This document shows positions 7,126 to 24,926 of a stretch of DNA of 64,000 nt, piece after piece. A model generated the notes under the pieces. The model ran no database searches, was not told where the DNA came from, and worked only from the letters and a program-made list of their open reading frames with translations. Position numbers and translations under genes: made by a program. This DNA comes from Candidatus Zixiibacteriota bacterium (lineage in GTDB: Bacteria > Zixibacteria > MSB-5A5 > GN15 > PGXB01), in contig LS998015.1 of NCBI GenBank assembly GCA_900498245.1, forward strand, positions 2,438,550-2,502,549. The letters run 5' to 3'. Each line of letters opens with the position of its first letter. The first letter of the stretch is position 1.

Positions 7126-10100
7126 CTACTTCATCAAGACCATTTTTCTCGTCTGTTCAAAACCGGCGGTTTTGAGACGATAGAAATAGATTCCTGACGC
7201 CACCGGCTGGCCATCAAATCCGGTGCCGTTCCAGACTACTTGATTCTGGCCGGCCTGAGCCATGCCGTCAAATACCGTCGCCACTTTCTTGCCGAGGATG
7301 TTGAAGACCTCAAGCGTGGCCTGGGCGGCGGAAGGCAGGCTAAAGGAAATTGTCGTCGCCGGATTGAAGGGGTTGGGGTAGTTCTGTCCCAGGGCAAATC
7401 CAGTCGGCAGAAGCGGTTCGCCATTCTTGGCAGTCAGATTGACCAGTTCTTGTCTGGCTCCGTTTTCGGTCCAGGTGATACTTTCGCCAGTCGCCATGCC
7501 GTCGACCATAATGGCGAAAGTTTCGCCTTTGGCCGGCCCTTCTTTTTCTGCCGTGGAAGGATCATCACCATAGACCGGCATAAATCCGAACTTACCGGCC
7601 CGCCCGACGGTCGCGGCTCCGATAACTCGGCCATCGCGACTGACAGCCGTCACTGTGGCGCCCTGAGGAAGAGCCTTGTTGTCAAGTTTCAATTGATAAG
7701 AATAGAGATTCATCCAGACCTTGGAAAGCGAAATCCGGTTTTCGGAAATCGCCCGATCGGCTTTCGCTAACATCTGCGGGAAGATCACCTTCGGCCCGAC
7801 TCCCGGATAAATCAGCAAATCGCTGTTGCTCACTTTGAGCCAGTAGCCAAATCCCGGACGCATCATCGTCAAAGTCGAATAGGCCGGTAGTTGCGGATCA
7901 TAGGTCTGAGCGACGCCGTCAAAGCCAAGTGCCACAATCAAATTCTCCATCACGGAATTGAGAGCAAAAGGCGTGGAATCGGCGACATCGGGCAGATATG
8001 AAACCAGGTTCCAACCGGTTTCCAGATGAATCGGCGTCGTCGCGGCCACCGGCGTGCCGGTGACTTCAAGGACCGTATCGCAATCCATCTTTACCCAATA
8101 GCCGTGGAAATGATCGGCGTTCCAGAGAGTGGAGAAATCGGGCAACGACGGATCATAGGTGAACCCGCCCTGTTCGAATCCCATAATGACTTCGACACAA
8201 CCGGATATAGATTTGAATAATTCCTGTATGTCATCATTTGGAGTATCGACATTCCACGAAATCAGGTTCCAGCCCTGTTTCAGAGCGATAGTTTTGGTCT
8301 GAACCGGGAAGATATCAAGGCAGACCTGGAAACTGGCCCCTTTTTCGGTCCATATCCGCGGCCCATTTGCCGCCGCTGGATACCCATTAATAAAGAAGGA
8401 AATGGTATCCCCGGGTTCGGCCCCGTCCGCCTCAATGGTGTATGGGTCATCTCGGTAGACCGGCATGAAACCGTAGCTTCCGGGCATTGATACGAAATAT
8501 GTTCCGCAATGAGATCCATTAGGAGCATAAGCATCTACGACCGATCCGACAGGCAGAGGAACACCATTATAATAATTATTGTCGCAATAGAAATTGACCC
8601 ATTCCGGCGTCGGCGTAACCGGCGGAACGGGAGTTAAAACAATATCAAAACCAATCTGGCCATATTCGATATTACGCAATATCCCGGGATAATATCCTTC
8701 CTTATAGGCGTAGGCATCGAAAGGATAAATGCCGGACGAGTGGCAGGCAAACTGGCCGTTGATATCGGTTAGATGCGATGACATCAGTGAACCACCGGGG
8801 AACTGACTCCAGAGCTCGACGGTGGCACCCTCAATTTCATTACCGGCGGTGTCTATGACCCGTCCGCATACATATCCGGAATCAATACCTATTACCACCC
8901 CGCCGGGAATGAAGGTCGGATTTAGAATACTCGACGAATCGGTGAATTGGACCGTTTTTGATGAATCAATGGACACAAAAGTCGAGATTATGGAATCGGT
9001 AACGGTGAAATGCAGTTTCGCCAATAATCCTCGTCCGGCCGGAATTGCGGGAGTCAGGAAAGGCGACACCAGAATATTGCATTCCCGGAGGTTATTATCA
9101 AACGAGCCGACTTTGGTATCGACATAGTTGACCCGGGTTCCACCGAACGTTATCGAATCCATTGTTATGAGAGAAGAACTCCATTTGAGGGGCACCAGAA
9201 TAGAACTGAGCGGCTGCACATTTTTGAAATAGACCGGCACCACTACCGAGTTGCCGGGGATGGCGGGAACCGTAGCCACCCAGGCGGAATCGTCCGTATC
9301 CGGACCGGAGGTCACATGAAGAATAACCGGTACAGCCAGTCTTCTGATTCCAACTTCTCCCATATCTTCCATCACAAATATGGAATCGACATAAATGCCG
9401 GGATTGAGACCGCTCGCATCGATGGTTACCGGCATGGACACGGGAGTCAGCTGGACATTAGGGTATCCCCAAGGGCATTGCGTTATAAGCCAGGTGCAAT
9501 TAGACTCTAGATAAAACGGGGCGGCACACCCGTGGGCTTCCGATATGTTGATAGTATCATACCTGATTTCGCCCTGCATCAAAGTAACATTGAATGAGGC
9601 CGGATCGGCAACGTAAGTACGTTCGAAGCAAGATGTATCGACCATCAATGAAATGATCGTGGTTCGCGGTGAATTTGCCGCCGAATCGGAATAGACAAAA
9701 ATCGTATCGAGATGCAATCCCGGTGTTAAGCCCTCCGCCTTTATCTTCACCGGTATTGATTTGGGCGTAACCAGCGGAGTGACGGCGGCGGTATCGGGTT
9801 CGGCGATGATACCCGAAAAGCCGAGTCGGAACGGTATATTATGCCCCCGCTGCTCGAACACCATGATGCTGGTATCGGGAATCGTATCTCCAGGATGAAT
9901 ATGATATGGAATAAAGTAAGGTTCCACGGCAATCCGGTTGGGAACCGTATCCGGCAAAACTGTCAACTTGACCTGCGCTACCGCCGGAAATCTCATCAAG
10001 GAATCAGGATATCCATAGAATGAAATGGTGTCAAAATAGTCGCCCGGAGCCAGGCCCTTTACATCGAAGCGATATAGTAATGATTCCGGCGTGGTAAAGG

Positions 10101-11982
10101 GGCCAGCCGCGTTGGCCACCAGCCACGATTGAAAATTGCGCGCCATAAATTGAATTGTTTGACCGTGTGATTCACGGACCCACAAACTGCGATAGGCAAC
10201 CGTATCCGGCGGCGCAACCGACACATTCAGACTCGACGGCGATACGAGCAAAACCGGAGGCACCGGCACAATCGTGATCTGCACCGGAATTTTCAGCGGC
10301 GAGTTCGTCACGTTGGCCGCCATCACTTCGACCGTATCAATATAGACTCCCGGAGCCAATCCGCCCATGGGGTAAATCCAAATAGTGTCGGGGGTAATAA
10401 GCGGCGAAAACTGCATCGTGTCGATTATCAGCCAATCCGAGGAACTGTGTGTCCAAAATTCGATATTGGCCCCGCCCTGCTCGGTTATTAAAATAGTATC
10501 GATATGATTGTCACCCTCGGTCAGAGTGGTATCAATCATCGCTTTTGACGATACCAGGGTCCCGGCCGCCTCGACATTCAGCACCGTTATGGTTATGGTT
10601 TCGCTATCGATATAGAAGCCGTCATTGGCATAAAAAGTCACATTATAAAGCCCCGCCTGAGAGGTGTCGGGCATGAATTCAAAATGCCCGGTGCCGTCGC
10701 CAAAATCGACAAATGTGGCGTGGGGCGGAAGAAAGGTTGAACCCAGACCCGGCGGGTCCCCATCAGGGTCGGTCGCTGTAACATCAAAGGCGAGAGTAGC
10801 ACCTTCATTGACAGTTTTATTACCAATCGGATTTAAGACCGGCGGACGATCGACGTTGGTGACCGTTATGGTGACCATTTCCGAATCGGCCAGGGTGCCG
10901 TCGCTTACAATAAAGAGAACTGGATAACTCCCGGCTTGATCATAGTTGGGATTGAAGTCGAATGTCCCGGTATTATTATGATTATCCGCAAAAGTGGCAT
11001 TGGCCGGAAGAGGCGCGGCCGTGAAAGAAAGCGGATCGCCGTCGGGATCGGTGCCGGAGACCCCGAAATGAAGGTTGGCGGCTTCCGCGACGGTCTTGGG
11101 ACCGATTGCGGCCAGCACCGGCGAACGATCAGTATTGGTTACCGTTATCGTTACCAGTTCGGAATCAGCCAGAGTCCCGTCACTGGCGACAAAAAGGACC
11201 TGGTAGCTCCCCGCCTGAGTATAATCGGGAGAAAAACTGAAAGAGCCGGTTCCGTTATGATTATCCGTGAAGGTTGCATGATTCGGAAGCGGGGCGGCGC
11301 TCAGGGTGATGGCATCGCCATCAGTATCGCTCGCTGAAACGCCAAAATTCAGGGCAGATGCTTCGCCAACACTTTTGGGTCCGATACTGTTAAGAACCGG
11401 CGGCTGGTTAGGTGGCGAAGTGGAATCTTCCACTGTCCAGCAAGTCTTTGTGAAAGTCGGAACGGGATCATCAAATAGCCAGTCATACGTCGGGTCCGAA
11501 GGGGTCCCTTGCTCAATACAGAATTGACCTGAAGTGGCGGAAGTTCTGAAGGTCCAGGAGAAATCTCTAATTTCCCCGAGCGCCGGCGGATAACCCTGAT
11601 TCATAGCCGCTCCGGTCACATTAAATAGATCAGGAAGTACGCCGTCCCAACTTTCCACATATGTGATTCTGAATAAATCCCAGAATCCGGCAAACTGCGT
11701 CGTTGTGACATGCGCAAACATCGTGTCGCCCTGATATTGCACCGGCACATTGCCGGTAAAAGCAAAGGGCGTCGACCACGTCGAACGATTGATCGAAAAC
11801 GGTATTGTATCAGTATTGTTCGAATAAACGTTAACGGTGAAGTCGGCGTTGGGCTGTATTTTTGTCCCCCCCGCCCATACCCCCGGGCCGGTTATATCGG
11901 CGCGGATGGTCATGCCATAGCCCTCTATCCCAATAGACAAAATAAACAGGGACAGAAGTACCAAAAATACCTTTTGTTTCAT
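7126..11982 (-). CDS. Giant multidomain secreted adhesin-like protein with type IX sorting domain
   Basis: A protein of 1618 residues. A signal peptide covers ~1-23 and an unassigned domain ~25-185. Three cadherin/Ig-like repeats follow at about 190-470 (PPVLNSIGPKSVGEA, SPVLAAIGPKTVAEA, PPVLNPIGNKTVNEG). Four BACON-like repeats occupy about 472-893. A cohesin-like domain lies at ~898-1030 (VPAIPGNSVVVPVYFKN) and a carboxypeptidase-regulatory fold at ~1035-1110 (CGRVIDTAGNEIEGATVEL). A copy of the ~95-residue module is at ~1121-1228 and two GWNLISW/GWNLVSY repeats at ~1233-1398. A third module copy is at ~1423-1518, and the sorting signal (LGQNYPNPFNPATTI to VRKMVLMK) is at ~1525-1618. It is probably a surface-attached, protein- or glycan-binding molecule; no enzyme motif is seen. 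Confidence 0.88.
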   Translation of the reverse strand: MKQKVFLVLLSLFILSIGIEGYGMTIRADITGPGVWAGGTKIQPNADFTVNVYSNNTDTIPFSINRSTWSTPFAFTGNVPVQYQGDTMFAHVTTTQFAGFWDLFRITYVESWDGVLPDLFNVTGAAMNQGYPPALGEIRDFSWTFRTSATSGQFCIEQGTPSDPTYDWLFDDPVPTFTKTCWTVEDSTSPPNQPPVLNSIGPKSVGEASALNFGVSASDTDGDAITLSAAPLPNHATFTDNHNGTGSFSFSPDYTQAGSYQVLFVASDGTLADSELVTITVTNTDRSPVLAAIGPKTVAEAANLHFGVSGTDPDGDPLSFTAAPLPANATFADNHNNTGTFDFNPNYDQAGSYPVLFIVSDGTLADSEMVTITVTNVDRPPVLNPIGNKTVNEGATLAFDVTATDPDGDPPGLGSTFLPPHATFVDFGDGTGHFEFMPDTSQAGLYNVTFYANDGFYIDSETITITVLNVEAAGTLVSSKAMIDTTLTEGDNHIDTILITEQGGANIEFWTHSSSDWLIIDTMQFSPLITPDTIWIYPMGGLAPGVYIDTVEVMAANVTNSPLKIPVQITIVPVPPVLLVSPSSLNVSVAPPDTVAYRSLWVRESHGQTIQFMARNFQSWLVANAAGPFTTPESLLYRFDVKGLAPGDYFDTISFYGYPDSLMRFPAVAQVKLTVLPDTVPNRIAVEPYFIPYHIHPGDTIPDTSIMVFEQRGHNIPFRLGFSGIIAEPDTAAVTPLVTPKSIPVKIKAEGLTPGLHLDTIFVYSDSAANSPRTTIISLMVDTSCFERTYVADPASFNVTLMQGEIRYDTINISEAHGCAAPFYLESNCTWLITQCPWGYPNVQLTPVSMPVTIDASGLNPGIYVDSIFVMEDMGEVGIRRLAVPVILHVTSGPDTDDSAWVATVPAIPGNSVVVPVYFKNVQPLSSILVPLKWSSSLITMDSITFGGTRVNYVDTKVGSFDNNLRECNILVSPFLTPAIPAGRGLLAKLHFTVTDSIISTFVSIDSSKTVQFTDSSSILNPTFIPGGVVIGIDSGYVCGRVIDTAGNEIEGATVELWSQFPGGSLMSSHLTDINGQFACHSSGIYPFDAYAYKEGYYPGILRNIEYGQIGFDIVLTPVPPVTPTPEWVNFYCDNNYYNGVPLPVGSVVDAYAPNGSHCGTYFVSMPGSYGFMPVYRDDPYTIEADGAEPGDTISFFINGYPAAANGPRIWTEKGASFQVCLDIFPVQTKTIALKQGWNLISWNVDTPNDDIQELFKSISGCVEVIMGFEQGGFTYDPSLPDFSTLWNADHFHGYWVKMDCDTVLEVTGTPVAATTPIHLETGWNLVSYLPDVADSTPFALNSVMENLIVALGFDGVAQTYDPQLPAYSTLTMMRPGFGYWLKVSNSDLLIYPGVGPKVIFPQMLAKADRAISENRISLSKVWMNLYSYQLKLDNKALPQGATVTAVSRDGRVIGAATVGRAGKFGFMPVYGDDPSTAEKEGPAKGETFAIMVDGMATGESITWTENGARQELVNLTAKNGEPLLPTGFALGQNYPNPFNPATTISFSLPSAAQATLEVFNILGKKVATVFDGMAQAGQNQVVWNGTGFDGQPVASGIYFYRLKTAGFEQTRKMVLMK

Positions 11983-16107: not shown

Positions 16108-16872
16108 TTAGATTTTCTTATGCGACGGCCCATCGTATTGGCAGTCACTCCGGCCCAACTGATGAAGCGGCTTTTCGCGAGTCATCTCCTCATAGGCATG
16201 AGCAATCAACCCGGGAACGCGCGAAAGAATAAAAAATCCCTTCCCCAGACGCCAGTCGAACTCCATATCGGAAATCACCGCGGCGATGGCCCCGTCGATG
16301 TTGATGGGCAGTTTCTTGCCCGATGATTTCCTCAGAACCTTTTCGACAGCAAGGCACAGATTAACATGACGGCCCCAAAAACCGCACCGCTCTGCAATTT
16401 CAAACAATTTAATTGTTCGCGGATCGGTCTTATGCAGAAGGTGCCCGAAGCCGGGCATCCTCTTCTTTTCGCTTTTGAGATCCTCAACCAGTTGCCCGGC
16501 AAGGTAATCAGGATCACCCTTTTTCTTAGACCATAATTGAAAGATCCGAGCCGCTTCCTCAATCGCCCCGCCGTGGGCGTCACCGATGGCCAGAATACCG
16601 GCGGCAACAGCGGCATTGAGCGGATTCCCCGCCGCGATAATATTTCTGGCACTCAAAATCGATGGCGCTGTGACGCCGTGGTCGAGCGAAGATACCAGAA
16701 TGGCCCGGACCATTTCCGCTTCGGCCCGCGACGGCAGTCGCCCTTTCAGGACCAGAAATACCGCTTCGGCATAGGACAGTTTTTCCATGATTTCATCGAT
16801 ATCATAGCCCCGAATTCGGATCTTTCCCGGTGAGACATCGGTTATGGCCGATTTCCAGTCCTTGTCCCCCAT
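16108..16872 (-). CDS. Short citrate-synthase-family protein, probable citryl-CoA lyase type
   Basis: A protein of 254 residues, far shorter than true citrate synthase (~370-430). It keeps the core of the family: IRIRGYDIDEIMEKLSYAEAVFLVLKG at the N-terminus, then AIGDAHGGAIEEA with the catalytic-type His, MPGFGHLLHKTDPR with the second His, and a C-terminal PGLIAHAYEEM. These compact homologues include the citryl-CoA lyase of Hydrogenobacter (citryl-CoA to acetyl-CoA plus oxaloacetate) and the CCL-like domain of ATP citrate lyase. No citryl-CoA synthetase subunits are in the window, so the reaction is inferred. It lies between the lipoprotein gene and rdgB. Confidence 0.7.
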   Translation of the reverse strand: MGDKDWKSAITDVSPGKIRIRGYDIDEIMEKLSYAEAVFLVLKGRLPSRAEAEMVRAILVSSLDHGVTAPSILSARNIIAAGNPLNAAVAAGILAIGDAHGGAIEEAARIFQLWSKKKGDPDYLAGQLVEDLKSEKKRMPGFGHLLHKTDPRTIKLFEIAERCGFWGRHVNLCLAVEKVLRKSSGKKLPINIDGAIAAVISDMEFDWRLGKGFFILSRVPGLIAHAYEEMTREKPLHQLGRSDCQYDGPSHKKI

Positions 16873-16882
16873 AAATTAATGC

Positions 16883-17701
16883 CTATTCGGTCCCCATCGA
16901 CTGGGGAGGAATTTTGGTCGAATCCAGTTTTGTCTCTTTAATATCGATTCCCTTAAACGACTTTTCTGCGAAGCGCAGCCACCCTTCCTGAAATCTTTTA
17001 ATATCCACGCCGAACAGTTCTTTGATCGACTTGTCGAAAGTTGCCGTCGATTGCCAGAGCATTTTAAGCCGATTGATACCAAAATTATAGGTAATGAAAG
17101 CCACTATCGAGGCCGCCTCCCAATTGCGGTGGAGACTATCAGCCCGGGCGTAACTTTCATTATTGGCCAGAGAATCGAGAGGAATAAACTGCTTTATTTC
17201 TATTAAGGAGTAGGTTAGATGATGATAGTCGCTTCCGGAGTAGTCAAGGAGTGTCGCGAGCCCGTCATAAAGAACTCTGAAATCGGTCATCCGGATATCC
17301 ATTTTATCGATCAGATAGCGGGCCAATTCGAGTCCGAACGGTGTCCGCCGGTCCCAGTGAATCTGATTCCCTTCATGGTATGGAAGAGTCCGGCCGGTCA
17401 ATTTTTGTCCTTCCTCGGGATCATTATGAATATAGAAATGGATCGTATCCTTGGGGATCTCGATGGCCAAGAAATCGCAATCTTCAGTCAGAAAGCGCTC
17501 ATACGCATCGGAAAATTCATCGATCTTCTTACCCCAATAAGATCCGGCCGGATAATGAAAAATAAAATGCTTATAGGTATATTGCTCCCAACCCGGGTAT
17601 TGCGGGGGCGGAGCGGCCTTTTTTTGGGTGCATCCTCCCGATAAAATAATTATCAACAGGATCATCGCCAGGCCGAAAAGGGCTATTTTTGTTAATTTCA
17701 T
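16883..17701 (-). CDS. Lipoprotein of unknown function
   Basis: A protein of 272 residues from the ATG that gives a normal signal peptide (MKLTKIALFGLAMILLI); an in-frame ATG 36 bases upstream is less likely. The lipobox LSGGC predicts lipid attachment. The mature part starts with a proline-rich linker, then WEQYTYKHFIFHYPAGS and HFYIHNDPEEG. The shape recalls peptidase-MA-like (gluzincin) extracytoplasmic proteins of this group. However, the HExxH zinc motif is absent, so no enzymatic role is assigned. It is 10 bp upstream of the citryl-CoA-lyase-like gene on the same strand. Confidence 0.7.
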   Translation of the reverse strand: MKLTKIALFGLAMILLIIILSGGCTQKKAAPPPQYPGWEQYTYKHFIFHYPAGSYWGKKIDEFSDAYERFLTEDCDFLAIEIPKDTIHFYIHNDPEEGQKLTGRTLPYHEGNQIHWDRRTPFGLELARYLIDKMDIRMTDFRVLYDGLATLLDYSGSDYHHLTYSLIEIKQFIPLDSLANNESYARADSLHRNWEAASIVAFITYNFGINRLKMLWQSTATFDKSIKELFGVDIKRFQEGWLRFAEKSFKGIDIKETKLDSTKIPPQSMGTE

Positions 17702-17785
17702 AGGCACTTTCAAAACAGTTTTCCAAAGATAATACAACTTTTTGAATATATCACGGTATCAGCAAATTGTCAATTGCCCCGAAAA

Positions 17786-17845: not shown

Positions 17846-18259
17846 CTAGATCGGCAGACGAGTGTAACGGAGGGCCTTAGTCGGGCAGAAATGAGCGCAG
17901 GCCGGATCCCCTTTGCAGAGATCGCATTTGACAACTTCATCATGAATGTCATCGATCAATGCGCATCCGAAGGGACAGGCCGCTACACAGGCCCGGCACT
18001 TGACGCAGCGGTCCATGTTCAATTCAATCGCGCCGGTGTCTTCATTACGCTTAAGAGCATCGAAAAAACAGGACTTAACACAGGCGGCATCATTACATTG
18101 CAGGCAGGTCACCGGGACATATTTGTCTTTGGCATGGGCCAGAGGATATATCCGGCTTTTACCCGGTTTCAGATTTTTGGAGTGACTGAAGGCGCAGGCC
18201 AGTTCACAGGTGCGGCAACCGGTACAAAGCGACGGATCAACGACAAAGCGATAGTTCAT
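17846..18259 (-). CDS. Four-cluster-type ferredoxin (HydN/CooF-like electron-transfer protein)
   Basis: A protein of 137 residues rich in 4Fe-4S motifs: CTGCRTCELAC, CLQCNDAACVKSC, CVKCRACVAACPFGC, and CDLCKGDPACAHFC with CPTKAL. Four clusters are expected. Proteins of this type relay electrons between oxidoreductase modules, for example in formate dehydrogenase, CO dehydrogenase and hydrogenase complexes. It overlaps the upstream 2Fe-2S/4Fe-4S subunit gene by four bases. It is the last gene of the 2-oxoacid:ferredoxin oxidoreductase operon, so it is probably a subunit or dedicated partner of that complex. Confidence 0.85.
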   Translation of the reverse strand: MNYRFVVDPSLCTGCRTCELACAFSHSKNLKPGKSRIYPLAHAKDKYVPVTCLQCNDAACVKSCFFDALKRNEDTGAIELNMDRCVKCRACVAACPFGCALIDDIHDEVVKCDLCKGDPACAHFCPTKALRYTRLPI

Positions 18260-19047
18260 CGCGACACCTCCGCGGCCATAACCACCAGTTTGCCCATCGT
18301 TTTGGCCGTATCCAGCCGCTTGCAGTCATCGCACGTTTCAAAATAACTCATCGGCAGGTCACGATTCTTGCATAAATATTCCGCAAAATCCCTGGAAATA
18401 ATCTTCTTCCCGCAATTTTTGCAGGTCAATAATTCGAATTCTCGTCCCCAGATACTCCGCTTGCCGTTTTCATCCTTCCATTCGATAAAATCGGTCGGGC
18501 AGATATTGGCACAGCTCAGACAGCCGATGCAGTCTGCAGGCGGCTGACCGAGCGGCCCGGAAATCACTTTTTCATGACCCCGCTCTACGGCCGAAATGGC
18601 ATGGCAGCCGAGTGCGTCGCAGATGCGGGTGCAGGCGTAACACATGATGCAATTGTCGCCGTCGGGAATCACCTCGTAGGGCGTCGACGTCACCCCGTGC
18701 TCGGCGGCCAGTTTCTGAATCACCGCGGAATTGGGATTGCGGGCCAGGTATAATTCCAGGATAGTGCGTCGCAATTCCATAACCTGCGCCGTATGCGTCC
18801 CCACTATCAATTCCGGCTCAACCGGGTAAAGGCAGGAAGTAACATGTTTCTTCCAGCCGTTCCAGTCCTTCTTGGTGATTTCGACCATACAAAGGCGGCA
18901 GGCCCCGCACGGTTCAATGGCGTCATGATGACAGAGGGTCGGGATATTTATTCCTTCCCGGCGGATTGCGGTCAGCACCATTTCGCCTTCTTCGGCCTGA
19001 ACCGCTTTTCCGTTGATATATATGGTAATCATCCTATCCCCGCTCAC
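18256..19047 (-). CDS. NuoG/HydA-like iron-sulfur subunit without a hydrogenase domain
   Basis: A protein of 263 residues. The N-terminal 2Fe-2S domain (about 8-85) has LCHHDAIEPCGACRLCMVEI and a later Cys. Two 4Fe-4S sites follow: CIMCYACTRICDALGC and CIGCLSCANICPTDF. The tail carries two Cys pairs (LTCKNCGKK and ETCDDCKR) resembling a zinc ribbon. It resembles the electron-transfer front of HydA/HndD or NuoG. The HxxxCxxC site (His-ligated cluster) expected after the 2Fe-2S domain is missing, and there is no H-cluster or molybdopterin domain. It overlaps both neighbours by four bases, so it is translationally coupled within the operon. Confidence 0.85.
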   Translation of the reverse strand: MSGDRMITIYINGKAVQAEEGEMVLTAIRREGINIPTLCHHDAIEPCGACRLCMVEITKKDWNGWKKHVTSCLYPVEPELIVGTHTAQVMELRRTILELYLARNPNSAVIQKLAAEHGVTSTPYEVIPDGDNCIMCYACTRICDALGCHAISAVERGHEKVISGPLGQPPADCIGCLSCANICPTDFIEWKDENGKRSIWGREFELLTCKNCGKKIISRDFAEYLCKNRDLPMSYFETCDDCKRLDTAKTMGKLVVMAAEVSR

Positions 19048-20897
19048 TTAATTTCAATCGCGTCGAAGTTGCAGGTGGCATAGCAGGAACCGCAGCGATC
19101 GCAAACGAGTTGATTTATAAAATGCTTCTTTTTCCGTTCCCCGGTGATAGCCCCCACCGGGCAGGCCTTGATACAGGCCAGGCACCCCGTGCAATCATCG
19201 GTAATTTCATACTTTATCAGGGCCCGGCAGACACCGGCGGGGCATTTCTTATCGCGGATGTGGGCCTCATATTCGTCGCGGAAATACTGGATGGTGCTCA
19301 AAAACGGATTAGGCCCGGACTGCCCCAACCCGCATAAAGAACCGATCTGTATGTTGCGCGACAGCTTTTCCATCTGCTCCAGATCCCCGTCTTCACCTTT
19401 GCCCTCGGTTATTTTCTCGCAGAGCCGGTGCAATTGATATAAGCCCTCGCGGCAGGGGACACACTTGCCGCACGACTCATAGACCAGGAAAGCCAGAAAA
19501 TATCTGGCGACATCGACCATGCAGGTCCGATCATCCATGATAATCATTCCGCCCGAGCCCATCATCGAGCCGGCTTCGGTCAGGGAATCGAAATCAACCG
19601 GCAGATCGAGTTTCGCATCCGGCAGACAACCACCCGACGGGCCGCCGGTCTGGACCGCCTTGAATTTCCGTTCGTTGGGTATGCCGCCGCCAATATCAAA
19701 AATAATCTGACGAAGGGTCATGCCCATCGGGACCTCAACTAAACCGGTATTGTTCACCTTTCCCGCCAGGGAAAAGACTTTGGTTCCGGGACTCTTCTTG
19801 GTGCCAATGGAGGTAAACCAGTCGGCGCCCTTTTCAATTATCATGGACACAGTGACGAAAGTCTCCACATTATTCAGGACGGTTGGCTTGTCGTATAGAC
19901 CCTTTATTACTGAGTGTATATATTTAGCGCGCGGTTCACCAACCTCACCGGCCACCGATTTCATGAGCGCCGATGATTCGCCGCAGACAAAGGCCCCGCC
20001 CCCGCGGTTGACCTGAATATCGAAATTTAAACCGGTCCCCAGAATATTTTCCCCCAGAAGTCCCGCTTCGCGCGCTTGCTCGATGGCTTTTTTCAGATTA
20101 TAGACGGCCTGTGGATATTCCTCACGAACATAGATATAACCTTGGGTCGATCCGACCGCGTAAGCGCAAATAATCATTCCTTCGAGAACGGAATGGGGAT
20201 CGCTTCCCATAACCGTACGATCCATGAACGCCCCCGGGTCGCCCTCATCGCCGTTGCAGATAACATAGCGAATATCGGAGGGCACTCCGGCGCAGGTGGC
20301 CCATTTTTTGCCTGTCAGGAATCCGCCACCACCGCGTCCCCGCAAAGCAGATTTGGATATTTCAGCGATGACCTGCTGCGGTGTCATGGTTGTCAGGGCC
20401 TTGGCCAGACCGGCATACCCCCCCGTGGCAATGGCATCGGTAATCCGAAGCGGATCAATCAGGCCGCAGTTGCGAAGAGCAATCCTCTGCTGATGGGCAT
20501 AAAACGGTATTTCCCGGTAACGGGCGATATGCTCGTGAGTCTTGATATCACTATATAGGAGTCGGTCGATGACCTCATTTTTCTCCAGGGTTTTTTCCAC
20601 GATTTCCGCGACATCTTTTACCTTCACCTTGGTATAGAAAATGTCCTGCGGCTCGATTATAACCAGGGGCCCGATAGCGCAGTATCCGTGACATCCGGTC
20701 TGGCGGAATGTTTCGATCGAAACCTGCGGGATTTTTTTCTGCGCTACGATCTTTTTGAACTCATCATACACTTCCGGCGCGCCGTTGGCTTCACAGGCCG
20801 TGCCGAAACAGATAAGTACTTTGCGTTCCTGGGCGACAAAATCCCGGCGGCATTCCTCGCGCCATTGCGATAATTTATCTATATTTTCAACCCGCAT
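19044..20897 (-). CDS. HydB/HndC/NuoF-type NADH-binding flavoprotein subunit
   Basis: A protein of 617 residues. An N-terminal thioredoxin-like 2Fe-2S domain (about 25-110) has CFGTACEANG and CHGYCAIGP. The FMN/NADH Rossmann region has LRGRGGGGFLTGKKW, CNGDEGDPGAFMDR and GAFVCGESSALM. An SLBB domain follows, then the NuoF 4Fe-4S site (ESCGKCVPCREG plus a later Cys). The C-terminus carries two further 4Fe-4S motifs (CTGCLACIKACP and CDRCGSCYATC). The extra N- and C-terminal cluster domains match HydB of electron-bifurcating HydABC hydrogenases rather than complex I NuoF. The expected role is exchange of electrons between NAD(H) and ferredoxin. Confidence 0.9.
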   Translation of the reverse strand: MRVENIDKLSQWREECRRDFVAQERKVLICFGTACEANGAPEVYDEFKKIVAQKKIPQVSIETFRQTGCHGYCAIGPLVIIEPQDIFYTKVKVKDVAEIVEKTLEKNEVIDRLLYSDIKTHEHIARYREIPFYAHQQRIALRNCGLIDPLRITDAIATGGYAGLAKALTTMTPQQVIAEISKSALRGRGGGGFLTGKKWATCAGVPSDIRYVICNGDEGDPGAFMDRTVMGSDPHSVLEGMIICAYAVGSTQGYIYVREEYPQAVYNLKKAIEQAREAGLLGENILGTGLNFDIQVNRGGGAFVCGESSALMKSVAGEVGEPRAKYIHSVIKGLYDKPTVLNNVETFVTVSMIIEKGADWFTSIGTKKSPGTKVFSLAGKVNNTGLVEVPMGMTLRQIIFDIGGGIPNERKFKAVQTGGPSGGCLPDAKLDLPVDFDSLTEAGSMMGSGGMIIMDDRTCMVDVARYFLAFLVYESCGKCVPCREGLYQLHRLCEKITEGKGEDGDLEQMEKLSRNIQIGSLCGLGQSGPNPFLSTIQYFRDEYEAHIRDKKCPAGVCRALIKYEITDDCTGCLACIKACPVGAITGERKKKHFINQLVCDRCGSCYATCNFDAIEIK

Positions 20898-20898
20898 T

Positions 20899-21354
20899 TT
20901 AATCCTTCTTTACCAGTTTCAGAACCTTGTCCTGACGGACAAACCCATGAACCTTGTCATTGATAACCACCACCGGAGCCATGGCACAAACCCCGACGCA
21001 GTTGACAATTTCCAGAGTGAATTTCATGTCCGGCGAGGTTTCCCCGGCTTTCATTTTTAATCCTGTCTCGAGTTGACTGAGTATCAGATCGGCATTTTTG
21101 ATATGGCAGGCCGTCCCCTGGCAAACCCTTATAATCACTTCCCCCCGGGGCTCCAAACTGAAAGCGTTATAAAAGGTCGAAACGCTGAAAACTTTGCTGA
21201 GGGGGACACCGAGCTCTTTTGATGTTTCAATAAGGGCCTCGCAGGGAAGATAATGAAATTCCTTCTGGATATCCTGAAGCACCATAATTAAAGAACCGGG
21301 ACTTTTGGGATTGCGGCCTATTATTTCGGAGACCTTGCTCATGTCGTGTGTCAT
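20899..21354 (-). CDS. NuoE/HndA-type thioredoxin-like 2Fe-2S subunit
   Basis: A protein of 151 residues with a helical N-terminus (LIMVLQDIQKEFHYLPCEAL) and a thioredoxin-like 2Fe-2S domain. The ligands are CQGTAC around residue 85 and CVGVC near 125. This is the HydC/HndA/NuoE partner of the NADH-binding flavoprotein. It is one base upstream of that subunit and three bases downstream of the 2-oxoacid oxidoreductase gamma subunit. The two modules are therefore in one polycistron. Confidence 0.9.
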   Translation of the reverse strand: MTHDMSKVSEIIGRNPKSPGSLIMVLQDIQKEFHYLPCEALIETSKELGVPLSKVFSVSTFYNAFSLEPRGEVIIRVCQGTACHIKNADLILSQLETGLKMKAGETSPDMKFTLEIVNCVGVCAMAPVVVINDKVHGFVRQDKVLKLVKKD

Positions 21355-21357
21355 TTC

Positions 21358-21927
21358 CTAACCTTTCGCTCCGATTTTGGTCGCCAATTCCCGGGCCAAC
21401 TTTTGTCCTTCCAGAAACGCCTGCTGATTGAGTTCTAAAAACGATTTCTTCTCCCCCATTTTTTTGATCATCATATCGGTCAGGGTTTCGAATTTTACTA
21501 TCCCGGTAATTTCCACGTAGGTTGCGAGCATGACCATATTGGCCACTTTGGTGTTGCCAATCCGGACGGCAATGTCGCTTGCCGGGACAAGAAATTCGGT
21601 AATGTCGCTGCGGCCGGAGACACTTTCTATCAGGGAACTATTAATGAAAAGGAGACCCCCGGGCCGGATGAGGGCTCCGAATTTCTCAAGCGACGGACGA
21701 TTAAATACGCAGGCCGATTCAGGATTGGAGATAATCGGGGAACCGATCCGCATTTCGGACACGACCACCGTGCAATTGGCGGTCCCTCCGCGCATCTCAG
21801 GGCCGTACGACGGCAGCCAACAAACCTGTTTGCCTTCGGCCATCCCGGCGTAGGCGAGCAATTGCCCCGCCGTCATAATTCCCTGTCCCCCGAAACCGGC
21901 GAGAATGACTTCTTTCTGCGGCATCAC
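21358..21927 (-). CDS. 2-oxoacid:ferredoxin oxidoreductase, gamma subunit
   Basis: A protein of 189 residues matching the gamma (POR/KOR/VOR) domain: LAGFGGQGIMTAGQLLAYAG at the N-terminus and LPSYGPEMRGGTANCTVVVS next, both highly conserved. It joins the alpha and beta subunits to complete the CoA-dependent enzyme that turns a 2-oxoacid plus CoA into acyl-CoA, CO2 and reduced ferredoxin. It overlaps the beta gene by four bases. Confidence 0.92.
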   Translation of the reverse strand: MMPQKEVILAGFGGQGIMTAGQLLAYAGMAEGKQVCWLPSYGPEMRGGTANCTVVVSEMRIGSPIISNPESACVFNRPSLEKFGALIRPGGLLFINSSLIESVSGRSDITEFLVPASDIAVRIGNTKVANMVMLATYVEITGIVKFETLTDMMIKKMGEKKSFLELNQQAFLEGQKLARELATKIGAKG

Positions 21928-22688
21928 TCACCCTCCCCCGTCGCCGGATCCTTGAAAGTTTTGAGGGGATAATACGGAAGCATATTATCTTCAAGCCACT
22001 TCAGGGCGGCGTTGGGTGCGATTCCCCAATTGGTCGGGCAGGTCGAAAGAACCTCGACCAGCGAGAAACAGCGCCCCTCGACCTGATAGGCAAAGGCCTT
22101 TTTGATTTTCTGCTTGGCATTGACAATATGCATCGCGGAATGAACCGAAACCCGCGCGATATAGGCCGGGGTTCTCAAACTCGATAAAAGTTCCGAAACT
22201 CGTATCGGATAGCCCGCCAGATTGACATCCCGACCAAAGGGCGACGTGGTCGTTTTCTGATGCGGCAAGGTTGTCGGCGCCATTTGGCCCCCGGTCATGC
22301 CGTAAATGGCGTTATTGACAAATATCACCGTGAACTTTTCACCCCGATTCGCTGAATGGACGATTTCACTCATCCCGATCGATGCCAGATCGCCGTCGCC
22401 CTGATAGGTAAAGACGATCATATCGGGTCGGAGTCTTTTGAAACCGGTCGCCATAGCCGGAGCCCGGCCATGAGCGGCTTCCATGAAATCGACATTGAAA
22501 TAATTATAAGCCAGGACCGAGCATCCCACCGGGGCCACCCCAACCGTCCTCTCGCGAACGCCCAGTTCATCGATACTTTCGGCCACCAGGCGGTGAATTA
22601 CACCATGGGTACACCCGGGACAATAATGAGTGATATTGCTGCTTAACGCTTCCGGGCGAGTCAGTATAGTCGTTGCATCTTGCGCCAT
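21924..22688 (-). CDS. 2-oxoacid:ferredoxin oxidoreductase, TPP-binding beta subunit
   Basis: A protein of 254 residues. The N-terminal ITHYCPGCTHGVIHR carries cluster-ligand cysteines. The thiamine pyrophosphate motif is GDGDLASIGMSE followed by NNAIYGMTGGQMAPTT. These define the beta subunit of KOR/VOR-class enzymes. It acts in the cytoplasm with the alpha, gamma and delta subunits encoded beside it. The gene order is delta-alpha-beta-gamma. Confidence 0.93.
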   Translation of the reverse strand: MAQDATTILTRPEALSSNITHYCPGCTHGVIHRLVAESIDELGVRERTVGVAPVGCSVLAYNYFNVDFMEAAHGRAPAMATGFKRLRPDMIVFTYQGDGDLASIGMSEIVHSANRGEKFTVIFVNNAIYGMTGGQMAPTTLPHQKTTTSPFGRDVNLAGYPIRVSELLSSLRTPAYIARVSVHSAMHIVNAKQKIKKAFAYQVEGRCFSLVEVLSTCPTNWGIAPNAALKWLEDNMLPYYPLKTFKDPATGEGE

Positions 22689-22695
22689 TTGTCAC

Positions 22696-23793
22696 CTACC
22701 TCATATAACCCGAAAGCGGGGTTTTCGTATCGAGTCCAAGTTGTTTTTTGACCATGATTTTCACTTCGTCCGGCGACGGCACAATTCCGCCCGTACGACC
22801 GTAGAAATGAAGCGGCTTTTTACTCATGGTACAGCGCTCGATATCTTCGATCATCTGCCCGACACTCATCTCGACCGTCAGGAGCGATTCGATATTTGAC
22901 TTTATCGCCTGTTCATAGACTTCCTTTTCCGGGAAGGGGAACAGAGATATGGGACGGAATAGCCCAATGCTTATCCCTTCTTTCTCCAATTCGTCAATGG
23001 CCGTCTGGCAAATGCGGGCCATCGTGCCATAGGCAAAAATCAGCATCCGGTTTTTATCATTCACTTTGTATAATTCATAGCGGATTTCATTCTTCTTGAT
23101 TTCTTCATACTTGGAAGCCAGGAGAAAACTGTTTTTCTCAAGCGCTACAGGGTCGAGAAACAGCGACTTTATGATTTGCGACTTGCGGCCCCTGGCACCG
23201 GTCAGAGCCCAGTCTTTGGGCGGCAAAGCCGGTTCTTCGTATTTCTCCGGAATCTCGACCGATTCCATCATCTGGCCGATCATACCGTCACCGATTATCA
23301 TCACCGGCGTACGGTACTTATCGGCGAGATGAAACGACAGCATCATTAAATCGACCGCCTCCTGAACCGATGACGGGGCCAATACAATGAGGCGATAGTC
23401 GCCGTGTCCGCCGCCCTTGGTGGCCTGGAAATAATCCGACTGAGCCGGCAGAATGCCTCCCAGACCGGGACCACCGCGCATAATATTGACCAGCACAACG
23501 GGCAGATGGGCGCCGGCCATGTACGATATCGCTTCCTGCATGAGGCTGATACCGGGACTGGAAGAGGTGGTAAAGACTCTCTTACCGGTGGAGGCCGCGC
23601 CGAAAAGCATATTGCCCACTGCCACTTCGCTTTCCGCCTGAACAAAGACCCCGCCCACTTCCGGGATGCGCCGTGACAGATACTCGGCCACTTCACTTTG
23701 TGGGGTGATCGGATAAGCGAAATAATTGACGGCTCCGGCCCGCAGAGCGGCCTCGGCAATCGCTTCATTTCCTTTCATTAATTGCTTCGCCAT
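22696..23793 (-). CDS. vorB: 2-oxoacid:ferredoxin oxidoreductase, alpha subunit (VorB-like)
   Basis: A protein of 365 residues from the ATG preceded by GAGGGGTG; a TTG 18 bases upstream is less likely. Sequence such as MKGNEAIAEAALRAG, FAYPITPQSEVAEYLSRR, NIMRGGPGLGGI and TKGGGHGDYRLIVLAPSS is the pattern of the VorB branch. That branch is often annotated as 3-methyl-2-oxobutanoate (2-oxoisovalerate) oxidoreductase, a step in branched-chain amino-acid catabolism. 2-oxoglutarate specificity is a real alternative that sequence alone does not settle. Confidence 0.88.
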   Translation of the reverse strand: MAKQLMKGNEAIAEAALRAGAVNYFAYPITPQSEVAEYLSRRIPEVGGVFVQAESEVAVGNMLFGAASTGKRVFTTSSSPGISLMQEAISYMAGAHLPVVLVNIMRGGPGLGGILPAQSDYFQATKGGGHGDYRLIVLAPSSVQEAVDLMMLSFHLADKYRTPVMIIGDGMIGQMMESVEIPEKYEEPALPPKDWALTGARGRKSQIIKSLFLDPVALEKNSFLLASKYEEIKKNEIRYELYKVNDKNRMLIFAYGTMARICQTAIDELEKEGISIGLFRPISLFPFPEKEVYEQAIKSNIESLLTVEMSVGQMIEDIERCTMSKKPLHFYGRTGGIVPSPDEVKIMVKKQLGLDTKTPLSGYMR

Positions 23794-23807
23794 AAAATTA
23801 TCACCCC

Positions 23808-24041
23808 TCAATAATTAAATAATGCGAACTGGGTTCCGTGAGTGTGCACCTCGATGGCCGCGTCGGGACAGACTATGGCGCAAATACGACAACCGATACA
23901 GCGATGCGGCTCCTTCAGCGTGGCGCAGAAATATCCTTTTTGATTAAGTTCCTTGGACATCGCCAGGATCTGCATCGGGCAGGCCTGAACACACAATTCG
24001 CAACCCTTACAGTAGGTTTTATTTATAATCACACCAGGCAT
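23808..24041 (-). CDS. 2-oxoacid:ferredoxin oxidoreductase, delta (ferredoxin) subunit
   Basis: A protein of 77 residues with two 4Fe-4S motifs: CKGCELCVQACP and CIGCRICAIVCPDAAIEV. It is the small ferredoxin-like subunit that passes electrons from the TPP-bound intermediate to external ferredoxin. It is placed immediately before the alpha subunit, as usual for four-subunit enzymes. Confidence 0.92.
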   Translation of the reverse strand: MPGVIINKTYCKGCELCVQACPMQILAMSKELNQKGYFCATLKEPHRCIGCRICAIVCPDAAIEVHTHGTQFALFNY

Positions 24042-24077
24042 GGCATCTATCCTTTATTTAAAGCGGCCTTTTTCGGA

Positions 24078-24794
24078 CTATTTCTTCCTCTCCCACGGTT
24101 TCAGCATCAAGCGCGTCAGCGGCAGGACCGGACAGTCTATCCGGGCTGGATCCATATTTTCCAAAACCTCCTTCTTGGCGCTTACAAACTTCAGGGGTAA
24201 ATGAGTTGCTTCTTCCACTTCCCGAGCCAGGCGGAAACCCTCCATAATTATTTCCGGCGATGTTTCATCAATCATGTGAGAATTGGAGATCAAGCCGGTG
24301 AATTTTAATTTCGAAGTCATCTCAATCCGGGTCATGGTTTTGATTGATCCGGCAACATCCGAAGTAAAAGGACGGCGGGAATTCAAAACCATGAGCATCT
24401 CATACCGGCCGGAAACAAATGCGTCCGACAAGGCTCCCAAAGCCCGGGCCCCTTGCGCATCGCCGCCGACATCAAGGACCAGTTTTTCCTCCGCACTCTC
24501 GATGGCCCCGCGAATTTCAGGAAGCAAAATCGGAAGGTCGGCATAATAATCACCACCTCGAGGAGTGATAATTCTTATACCCAATTCCTCCATCAATTCC
24601 ATAACTTCGCGCGACCGGAAATAAGGGTTTACCAAGTCCAGATCGGCGATAGTAAGGAGAGTCTTTTCCGTTTCATGAAGATAGCGGGTCAGATTTACGG
24701 CGACTTCGGTCTTCCCGCTGCCGAATCCGCCGACCAGGATAATCTTCCGGGCAGGAATAAGGGGGTATCGAAAGCCTGTCCCCTGTTCATTCAT
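24078..24794 (-). CDS. P-loop ATPase (MinD/CbiA-like) leading the oxidoreductase operon
   Basis: A protein of 238 residues from the ATG preceded by AGAGATAAAT; a longer frame upstream lacks support. A Walker A motif (GGFGSGKTEVAVNL) is near residue 20, then DLDLVNPYFRSRE and a Walker-B-like LVLDVGGDAQGARAL. The fold is of the SIMIBI class (ParA/MinD/CobB-like). Its place at the head of the operon, 36 bp before the ferredoxin subunit, suggests a maturation or iron-sulfur delivery role for the enzyme complex. No direct evidence for that role is present. Confidence 0.75.
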   Translation of the reverse strand: MNEQGTGFRYPLIPARKIILVGGFGSGKTEVAVNLTRYLHETEKTLLTIADLDLVNPYFRSREVMELMEELGIRIITPRGGDYYADLPILLPEIRGAIESAEEKLVLDVGGDAQGARALGALSDAFVSGRYEMLMVLNSRRPFTSDVAGSIKTMTRIEMTSKLKFTGLISNSHMIDETSPEIIMEGFRLAREVEEATHLPLKFVSAKKEVLENMDPARIDCPVLPLTRLMLKPWERKK

Positions 24795-24895: not shown

Positions 24896-24926
24896 ATAAT
24901 ATCGAAAAAAAATCGGAATAAGTCAA
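24896..24926 (-). promoter_or_regulatory. Candidate promoter for the 2-oxoacid oxidoreductase operon
   Basis: TTGACT and TATTAT lie 19 bases apart, with a shifted ATATTA giving 18. The site precedes the ATPase gene by about 100 bases. Apart from this, no feature was seen in 24870-25043. Confidence 0.4.

What the first reader, a model, noticed from the sequence alone, without database searches (positions are those of the whole stretch)
17846..24794. 2-oxoacid:ferredoxin oxidoreductase fused by operon to a HydBC-like NADH module lacking hydrogenase
Seen: nine genes (ATPase; delta, alpha, beta and gamma subunits; NuoE-like; HydB-like; truncated HydA/NuoG-like; polyferredoxin) lie in one unit, most junctions overlapping or within a few bases, ending at a terminator. 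Known: HydB/HndC-type subunits with extra N- and C-terminal clusters are the core of electron-bifurcating hydrogenases. Inferred: here the catalytic partner would be a TPP-dependent 2-oxoacid oxidoreductase. The complex could move electrons from the 2-oxoacid directly to NAD, possibly with bifurcation to or from ferredoxin.
Basis: partly seen in the sequence, partly recalled or inferred. Interest (0 to 1): 0.75.

Follow-up and report, generated by a model that had tools for sequence, protein, structure and literature searches.

The report
Predicted VOR–Bfu bifurcating keto-acid oxidoreductase
Nine co-transcribed genes in an uncultured Zixibacteria chromosome appear to build one enzyme that burns keto acids (probably from branched-chain amino acids) and splits the electrons between NAD and ferredoxin; it is a new variant of a class already predicted, but never purified, with a 2-oxoacid as fuel.

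Summary
Observation confirmed: nine minus-strand genes (24794→17846), junctions −4 to +36 bp: P-loop NTPase, VOR delta-alpha-beta-gamma, BfuC, BfuB, BfuA, HycB-like polyferredoxin. This locus is a distinct variant: (1) the catalytic unit is VorB-type, not PorA; (2) it carries an extra subunit 44% identical to WorS, the electron wire of tungsten Wor-Bfu (solved in PDB 9mqx), and BfuA's best relative is also 9mqx; (3) its BfuB does not group with that of Firmicutes Por-Bfu (AU p=4e-5), so the pairing arose at least twice. All B1–B5 cluster ligands, including the bifurcation-specific His, are present; BfuA is Type 2 (no catalytic domain). The order is conserved in Zixibacteria (57 of 58 informative genomes) and at least nine Myxococcota; only one genome has the modules apart (operon split within gamma). 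Bfu-linked VORs form one clade with one apparent loss. Most likely function: 2 oxoacid + 2 CoA + NAD+ + Fdox → 2 acyl-CoA + 2 CO2 + NADH + Fdred. Complex formation, substrate and bifurcation remain experimentally unshown.

The parts
24078..24794 (-). P-loop NTPase (SIMIBI/SRP-like fold), accessory of this VOR subgroup; role unknown (assembly or maturation inferred)
   Evidence: Invariant G-x-x-GSGK P-loop in 14 orthologues; Foldseek to Ffh/FtsY; in Zixibacteria found essentially only in genomes with this VOR; also next to Bfu-less VORs in other phyla
23808..24041 (-). delta subunit, 2x[4Fe-4S] ferredoxin
   Evidence: Pfam/NCBIfam OorD/PorD
22696..23811 (-). alpha subunit (VorB type), YPITP motif; true start probably ATG 23793
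   Evidence: NF005507 VorB 517.9 bits vs cut-off 399; orthologue starts
21924..22688 (-). beta subunit, TPP/Mg site (GDGD...NN) and proximal [4Fe-4S]; Leu at the StOFOR1 Lys49 position
   Evidence: PF02775; alignment
21358..21927 (-). gamma subunit (POR domain III)
   Evidence: PF01558
20899..21354 (-). BfuC (NuoE/HydC-like, [2Fe-2S] C1)
   Evidence: PF01257; best PDB 8a6t_C, 9mqx_C, 7t2r_C
19044..20897 (-). BfuB (HydB-like, FMN/NAD domain, B1-B5 clusters)
   Evidence: PDB 8a6t_B 758 bits, 9mqx_B 729 bits; ligand check incl. His546
18256..19047 (-). BfuA, Type 2 (A1, A2, A4; no A3/A5, no catalytic domain); likely start ATG 19032
   Evidence: PDB 9mqx_A 170.8 bits, next 83.5; Foldseek rank 1 9mqx_A; Cys alignment
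17846..18259 (-). HycB/WorS/PadI-N-type polyferredoxin (PFd), 4x[4Fe-4S]: proposed electron wire between VOR and BfuA
   Evidence: 44% identity to WorS of a Wor-Bfu operon with all 16 cluster Cys invariant; PDB 8c0z_C (AOR) and 9mqx_E; NF045766 PadI 91.5 bits
17790..17819 (-). 13-bp hairpin after the operon, plausible terminator
24898..24926 (-). promoter-like TTGACT-17-GATATT upstream of the NTPase (weak match)
16108..16872 (-). conserved neighbour, not claimed as a subunit: citryl-CoA lyase-like
   Evidence: NF004869 299 bits vs 212; PDB 6hxp 232 bits; retained near the operon in many relatives

Best explanation
The operon encodes one soluble complex, a Type 2 Bfu enzyme ('VOR-Bfu'). The TPP unit alpha-beta-gamma oxidatively decarboxylates a non-acidic, probably branched-chain 2-oxoacid to acyl-CoA. 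Electrons leave through beta's proximal cluster and the two delta clusters, pass along the four-cluster WorS-like PFd to BfuA (A4, A2, A1), and enter the BfuBC FMN/Fe-S core. There they are split: one pair to NAD+, one pair to ferredoxin via B2/B3/B4. Net: 2 RCOCOO- + 2 CoA + NAD+ + Fdox -> 2 RCO-CoA + 2 CO2 + NADH + Fdred2-. The NTPase is an accessory factor. Shown by sequence: the gene set, intact active-site and cluster motifs, and conserved linkage. Inferred: complex formation, subunit order of the wire, substrate, coupling and direction.
For: Linkage: with BfuB and alpha on one contig, they are adjacent in 57 of 58 Zixibacteria genomes (gap 1.7-2.3 kb), the exception being one operon split within gamma. 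All nine genes in order in at least nine Myxococcota loci (L058; L161-163, L165, L167, L168, L170, L175). Bfu-less relatives have no close BfuB elsewhere (at most 49% identity in four genomes). Bfu-linked VORs form one clade (99/96) with a single Bfu-less member. BfuA has no catalytic domain, so it needs an external electron source, and VOR is the only one in the operon. B1-B5 ligands including the diagnostic His are conserved, while B3-B5 are absent from the same genome's short NuoF. PFd and BfuA resemble WorS/WorA of the solved bifurcating Wor-Bfu. PadI is a natural fusion of a PFd-like domain to a POR beta domain, a precedent for PFd-VOR contact. Firmicutes put bfuCBA inside a por cluster, an independent pairing (AU p=4e-5).
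Against: No biochemistry, transcript or interface data. VOR can work with ferredoxin alone: Bfu-less VOR clusters exist in sister Zixibacteria and other phyla, so two enzymes sharing an operon remain possible. A 2-oxoacid can already reduce both Fd and NAD without bifurcation, so the benefit is tight coupling rather than necessity. Substrate assignment rests on family scores and one pocket residue.
Confidence: 0.65

Rival explanations
1. Two independent enzymes share an operon: a ferredoxin-dependent VOR and a separate BfuABC-PFd module serving another partner encoded elsewhere.
For: Bfu-less VOR clusters exist in relatives; POR family enzymes normally use free ferredoxin.
Against: This BfuB clade has not been seen without VOR except in the one split operon; order kept across two phyla; the locus has no WorL/AOR, hydrogenase or other catalytic subunit for a Type 2 BfuA; VORs with Bfu form one clade.
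Confidence: 0.15
2. One complex, but a simple 2-oxoacid:NAD+ oxidoreductase without bifurcation, functionally like phenylglyoxylate:NAD+ oxidoreductase (Pad).
For: PFd resembles PadI-N; electrons from 2-oxoacids (about -500 mV) can reach NAD+ directly.
Against: B2-B5 ligands, unnecessary for NAD reduction and absent in non-bifurcating homologues (PMC9304861), are kept; no GltD-like FAD subunit in the operon.
Confidence: 0.12
3. Runs in reverse: NADH + Fdred drive reductive carboxylation of acyl-CoA to 2-oxoacids for biosynthesis, as Schut et al. suggested for Por-Bfu.
For: POR enzymes are reversible; a citryl-CoA lyase gene, typical of some reductive TCA variants, is a conserved neighbour.
Against: A mix of NADH (-280 mV) and Fd (-500 mV) is a weaker reductant than Fd alone for a -500 mV reaction (E' from PMC9304861; arithmetic: oxidation about -42 kJ per 4 electrons).
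Confidence: 0.08
4. Same complex and coupling, but the substrate is 2-oxoglutarate or pyruvate rather than branched-chain 2-oxoacids (a variant of the best explanation, not exclusive of its mechanism).
For: VorB-family naming is not a test; the citryl-CoA lyase neighbour hints at TCA-type metabolism.
Against: Beta has Leu where StOFOR1 Lys49 is needed for 2-oxoglutarate (K49I loses that activity but keeps pyruvate, PMC5020499; alignment); the genome has separate NifJ-size PFOR, KorAB-type and IOR-size enzymes.
Confidence: 0.3

Closest known systems
Por-Bfu (predicted; Dehalococcoides, syntrophic Proteobacteria; Schut et al. 2022, PMC9304861)
   Same: Four 2-oxoacid oxidoreductase subunits plus BfuABC in one operon; Type 2 BfuA; proposed third substrate a 2-oxoacid.
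   Different: Here VorB-type alpha, extra WorS-like PFd and NTPase; Zixibacteria/Myxococcota, not named in the text read; BfuB separate from the Firmicutes Por-Bfu found here. The Dehalococcoides sequences could not be fetched for a direct comparison.
Wor-Bfu / Class IV WOR (A. mobile WorABCSL, PDB 9mqx; E. limosum)
   Same: BfuA, BfuB, BfuC and S subunits homologous; 9mqx_A is the best match of BfuA by sequence and fold.
   Different: The tungstopterin WorL is replaced by a TPP-dependent VOR.
Phenylglyoxylate:NAD+ oxidoreductase (PadEFGHI)
   Same: POR-family enzyme linked to NAD; PFd-like domain fused to the beta domain in PadI.
   Different: No Bfu/NuoEF module in Pad (its NAD unit is a separate FAD protein; my own knowledge); window subunits score far below Pad cut-offs.
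Bifurcating [FeFe]/[NiFe] hydrogenases HydABC, HydABCSL (8a6t, 7t2r)
   Same: BfuBC core with B1-B5, FMN and C1.
   Different: No H-cluster domain, A3 or A5; catalytic partner is VOR.
Ferredoxin-dependent VorDABC (NF005507)
   Same: Catalytic subunits.
   Different: Has an attached NAD/Fd bifurcating module instead of relying on free ferredoxin alone.

Membership tests
Bfu family | BfuB with FMN/NAD domain and B1-B5 cluster ligands, incl. B2 His/Cys | tested here: met
   B1 C476/479/482/522; B2 C459,T497,H546,C552,C557; B3/B4 8 Cys; B5 C30/35/69/73; conserved in 43 Zixi rows bar isolated residues
Bfu family | BfuC NuoE-like [2Fe-2S] subunit | tested here: met
   PF01257; HydC chains top the PDB list
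Bfu family | coupled reduction of NAD and Fd | not testable with these tools
   needs an enzyme assay
Type 2 Bfu | BfuA with A1, A2, A4, lacking A3 (His-Cys3) and A5, plus extra catalytic subunits | tested here: met
   12 cluster Cys invariant, no His-Cys3 or C-terminal 2Fe-2S domain; cluster naming mapped from PMC9304861 by inference
Por-Bfu (Schut 2022) | four POR subunits and BfuABC in one operon | tested here: met
Por-Bfu (Schut 2022) | pyruvate oxidoreductase (PorA) catalytic subunit | tested here: not met
   alpha is VorB NF005507 518 bits; PorA_Arch only 106 vs cut-off 550
Por-Bfu (Schut 2022) | BfuB in the Por-Bfu sub-clades (35, 44, 45) | tested here: inconclusive
Wor-Bfu (Class IV WOR) | tungstopterin WorL subunit | tested here: not met
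   no AFOR domain in the operon; the S-like and ABC subunits are present
VOR (NF005507 VorB) | alpha above the curated cut-off | tested here: met
   517.9 vs 399 bits
VOR (NF005507 VorB) | branched-chain 2-oxoacid specificity | not testable with these tools
   only indirect: Leu at the Lys49 position
Phenylglyoxylate dehydrogenase (Pad) | PadG/PadI equivalogs | tested here: not met
   alpha 72 bits (PadG) and beta 45 bits (PadI) vs cut-off 700

The most novel reading that the evidence does not exclude
A previously undescribed Bfu class in which a TPP-dependent branched-chain 2-oxoacid oxidoreductase took the place of WorL on the WorS-type nanowire: several VOR heads could feed one BfuABC bifurcating plug (as three WorSL feed one ABC in A. 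mobile WOR), making bifurcating branched-chain amino-acid oxidation a widespread trait of Zixibacteria and part of Myxococcota.
Probability: 0.3. Interest if true: 0.68.

Novelty: new variant of a known kind. Interest (0 to 1): 0.5.

Why it matters
It suggests that the bifurcating BfuABC plug and the WorS wire are interchangeable modules, and that Bfu modules were paired at least twice, independently, with 2-oxoacid oxidoreductases. If it works as inferred, amino-acid oxidation in uncultured Zixibacteria and some Myxococcota would yield NADH and reduced ferredoxin in fixed ratio, which changes how their energy budgets are modelled. No Bfu enzyme with a 2-oxoacid as third substrate is described as characterised in the sources read here, so this is a concrete, testable target.

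Tried and rejected
NTPase as a marker exclusive to VOR-Bfu: true in Zixibacteria but not elsewhere; NTPase-VOR clusters without Bfu exist (L156, L157, L160, L171-173). C-terminal CxxC...CxxC of BfuA as an extra electron-transfer cluster: rejected, not conserved in L027, L029, L036, L058. 2-oxoglutarate synthase reading: disfavoured by beta Leu at the Lys49 position. VOR-Bfu as the only possible route for branched-chain 2-oxoacids in this genome: cannot be claimed, an E1-type dehydrogenase is also present. Direct comparison with Dehalococcoides Por-Bfu: no handle to that genome, and the paper's supplement was not readable. No complex prediction was possible (single chains only).

Full report
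Observation. The nine genes are real, on the minus strand from 24794 to 17846, with gaps of 36, -4, 7, -4, 3, 1, -4 and -4 bp using the listed starts. Orthologue starts suggest that alpha really begins at 23793 and BfuA at 19032, which leaves small positive gaps there. Promoter-like matches over the region number 14 against 8.2+-3.6 in shuffles, none of them strong inside the unit. A 13-bp hairpin follows the last gene, and the next gene has its own strong promoter-like site. The genome is a single 3.5-Mb contig whose relatives are Candidatus Zixiibacteriota.

Identity of the parts. The catalytic part is a four-subunit 2-oxoacid oxidoreductase. Alpha is VorB-type (NF005507, 517.9 bits, cut-off 399), beta has an intact TPP motif and the proximal-cluster cysteines, and gamma and delta are standard. 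The same genome has three other enzymes of the superfamily: a NifJ-size protein, a KorAB-type set with its own delta and gamma, and an IOR-size alpha. The redox part is BfuC, BfuB and BfuA. BfuB keeps every ligand of clusters B1 to B5, including the His of the B2 cluster that Schut et al. report in nearly all Bfu enzymes and not in non-bifurcating homologues; the Cys/Thr position is Thr here (PMC9304861). BfuA has the N-terminal [2Fe-2S] and two [4Fe-4S] sites, lacks the His-Cys3 cluster and any catalytic domain, and so fits Type 2.

The bridge. The last gene encodes a 137-residue protein with 16 cluster cysteines. It is 43-44% identical to the WorS of Firmicutes Wor-Bfu operons (L065 is S-L-C-B-A with an AFOR-domain L), and all 16 cysteines are invariant between them. 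Its best PDB relatives are the AOR wire subunit 8c0z_C and 9mqx_E. 9mqx is titled 'Electron-bifurcating Tungstopyranopterin-containing aldehyde oxidoreductase with NADH'. It is also by far the best sequence match of BfuA (170.8 bits, next 83.5) and the first structural match of its moderate-confidence model. A 2026 classification paper describes WorSL nanowires feeding a single WorABC plug (PMC13328260). PadI of NAD-linked phenylglyoxylate dehydrogenase joins a PFd-like domain to a POR beta domain: window PFd matches profile positions 9-136 and a PorB matches 144-435. A PFd-VOR contact therefore has a covalent precedent.

Linkage across genomes. In 132 genomes of the phylum, 72 have this BfuB and 78 this alpha; 70 have both. 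Where both lie on one contig they are adjacent in 57 of 58, 1.7 to 2.3 kb apart; 12 further pairs lie on different contigs of fragmented assemblies. The exception, G025, is an operon broken inside gamma. The full order recurs in at least nine Myxococcota loci. Four Myxococcota with a Bfu-less VOR have no close BfuB elsewhere (best 49%), so these are absences, not separations. In an alpha+beta tree the Bfu-linked VORs form one clade (99/96) with one Bfu-less member, L160, whose gene order is also rearranged; the other Bfu-less relatives lie outside.

Independent pairings. Bacillota L062, L080 and L089 have gamma-delta-alpha, bfuC-B-A, then beta: the Bfu genes sit inside a pyruvate-type por cluster. 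Nitrospirota L106 has bfuC-B-x-A followed by gamma-delta-alpha-beta. Holding the window's BfuB clade together with the Bacillota Por-Bfu BfuB is rejected (AU p=4.1e-5). 2-oxoacid oxidoreductases were therefore joined to Bfu modules at least twice.

Mechanism. Electrons from the TPP intermediate go to the beta cluster, delta, PFd, BfuA and the FMN core of BfuBC, then to NAD+ and ferredoxin. With the potentials listed in PMC9304861, oxidation of two 2-oxoacids with NAD+ and Fd gives about -42 kJ per 4 electrons against about 0 for ferredoxin alone at -500 mV. This favours the oxidative direction and suggests a benefit at low substrate. Beta has Leu where Lys49 of StOFOR1 is needed for 2-oxoglutarate (PMC5020499), so a non-acidic 2-oxoacid is favoured, and VorB-type scores point to branched-chain acids. 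Complex formation, substrate and bifurcation are inferences.

Novelty. Schut et al. predicted Por-Bfu in 2022, naming Chloroflexi and syntrophic Proteobacteria, with four POR subunits and no biochemical test of that type. The present locus differs in catalytic family, in the WorS-type bridge, in the NTPase and in host phyla. It is a new variant of a known, still uncharacterised kind. A search for 'Por-Bfu' returned only that paper.

Limits. The Dehalococcoides reference could not be fetched, and no multi-chain prediction was available. The NTPase model is a confident SRP/FtsY-like P-loop fold but its role is unknown.

Noticed in passing
window 16108-16872 and 16883-17737 (minus): A citryl-CoA lyase-like gene (closest to H. 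thermophilus 6hxp) and a conserved unknown lipoprotein-like gene stay next to the VOR-Bfu operon in many Zixibacteria, even when moved to its other side (L045, L049). A metabolic link is possible.
   Followed up: partly
L058, junctions BfuC/BfuB, BfuB/BfuA and BfuA/PFd (about 8930-9000, 10900-10960, 11800-11870): In a Myxococcales MAG, hexanucleotide GAGCAC-type repeats (readable as EHEHEH or TSTSTS) sit at three junctions of the operon.
   Followed up: no
L159 8442-12654: Myxococcota genome with tandem BfuC-BfuB-BfuC-BfuB after VOR gamma; the contig ends there.
   Followed up: no
L055, L057, L059, L061: The BfuB clade nearest to VOR-Bfu belongs to Bacillota operons with a 1300-residue NuoG/FAD (HdrA-like) fusion including an FlpD/MvhD domain: an apparently different Bfu type.
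   Followed up: partly
L125 and L126 (genome G025): The operon is split inside gamma into two sites about 0.33 Mb apart on one contig, with a gamma 5' fragment left at one site; real rearrangement or assembly error.
   Followed up: partly
Zixibacteria BfuB alignment, column of window Cys479: Two rows carry Asp in place of a B1 cluster Cys, and the Thr/Cys ligand of B2 varies freely (C/T/S) within this one orthologue group.
   Followed up: no
L043 (record titled Ignavibacterium sp.): The locus sits deep among Zixibacteria and appears to match genome G077 of the window's own family; the record's organism name is probably wrong.
   Followed up: no
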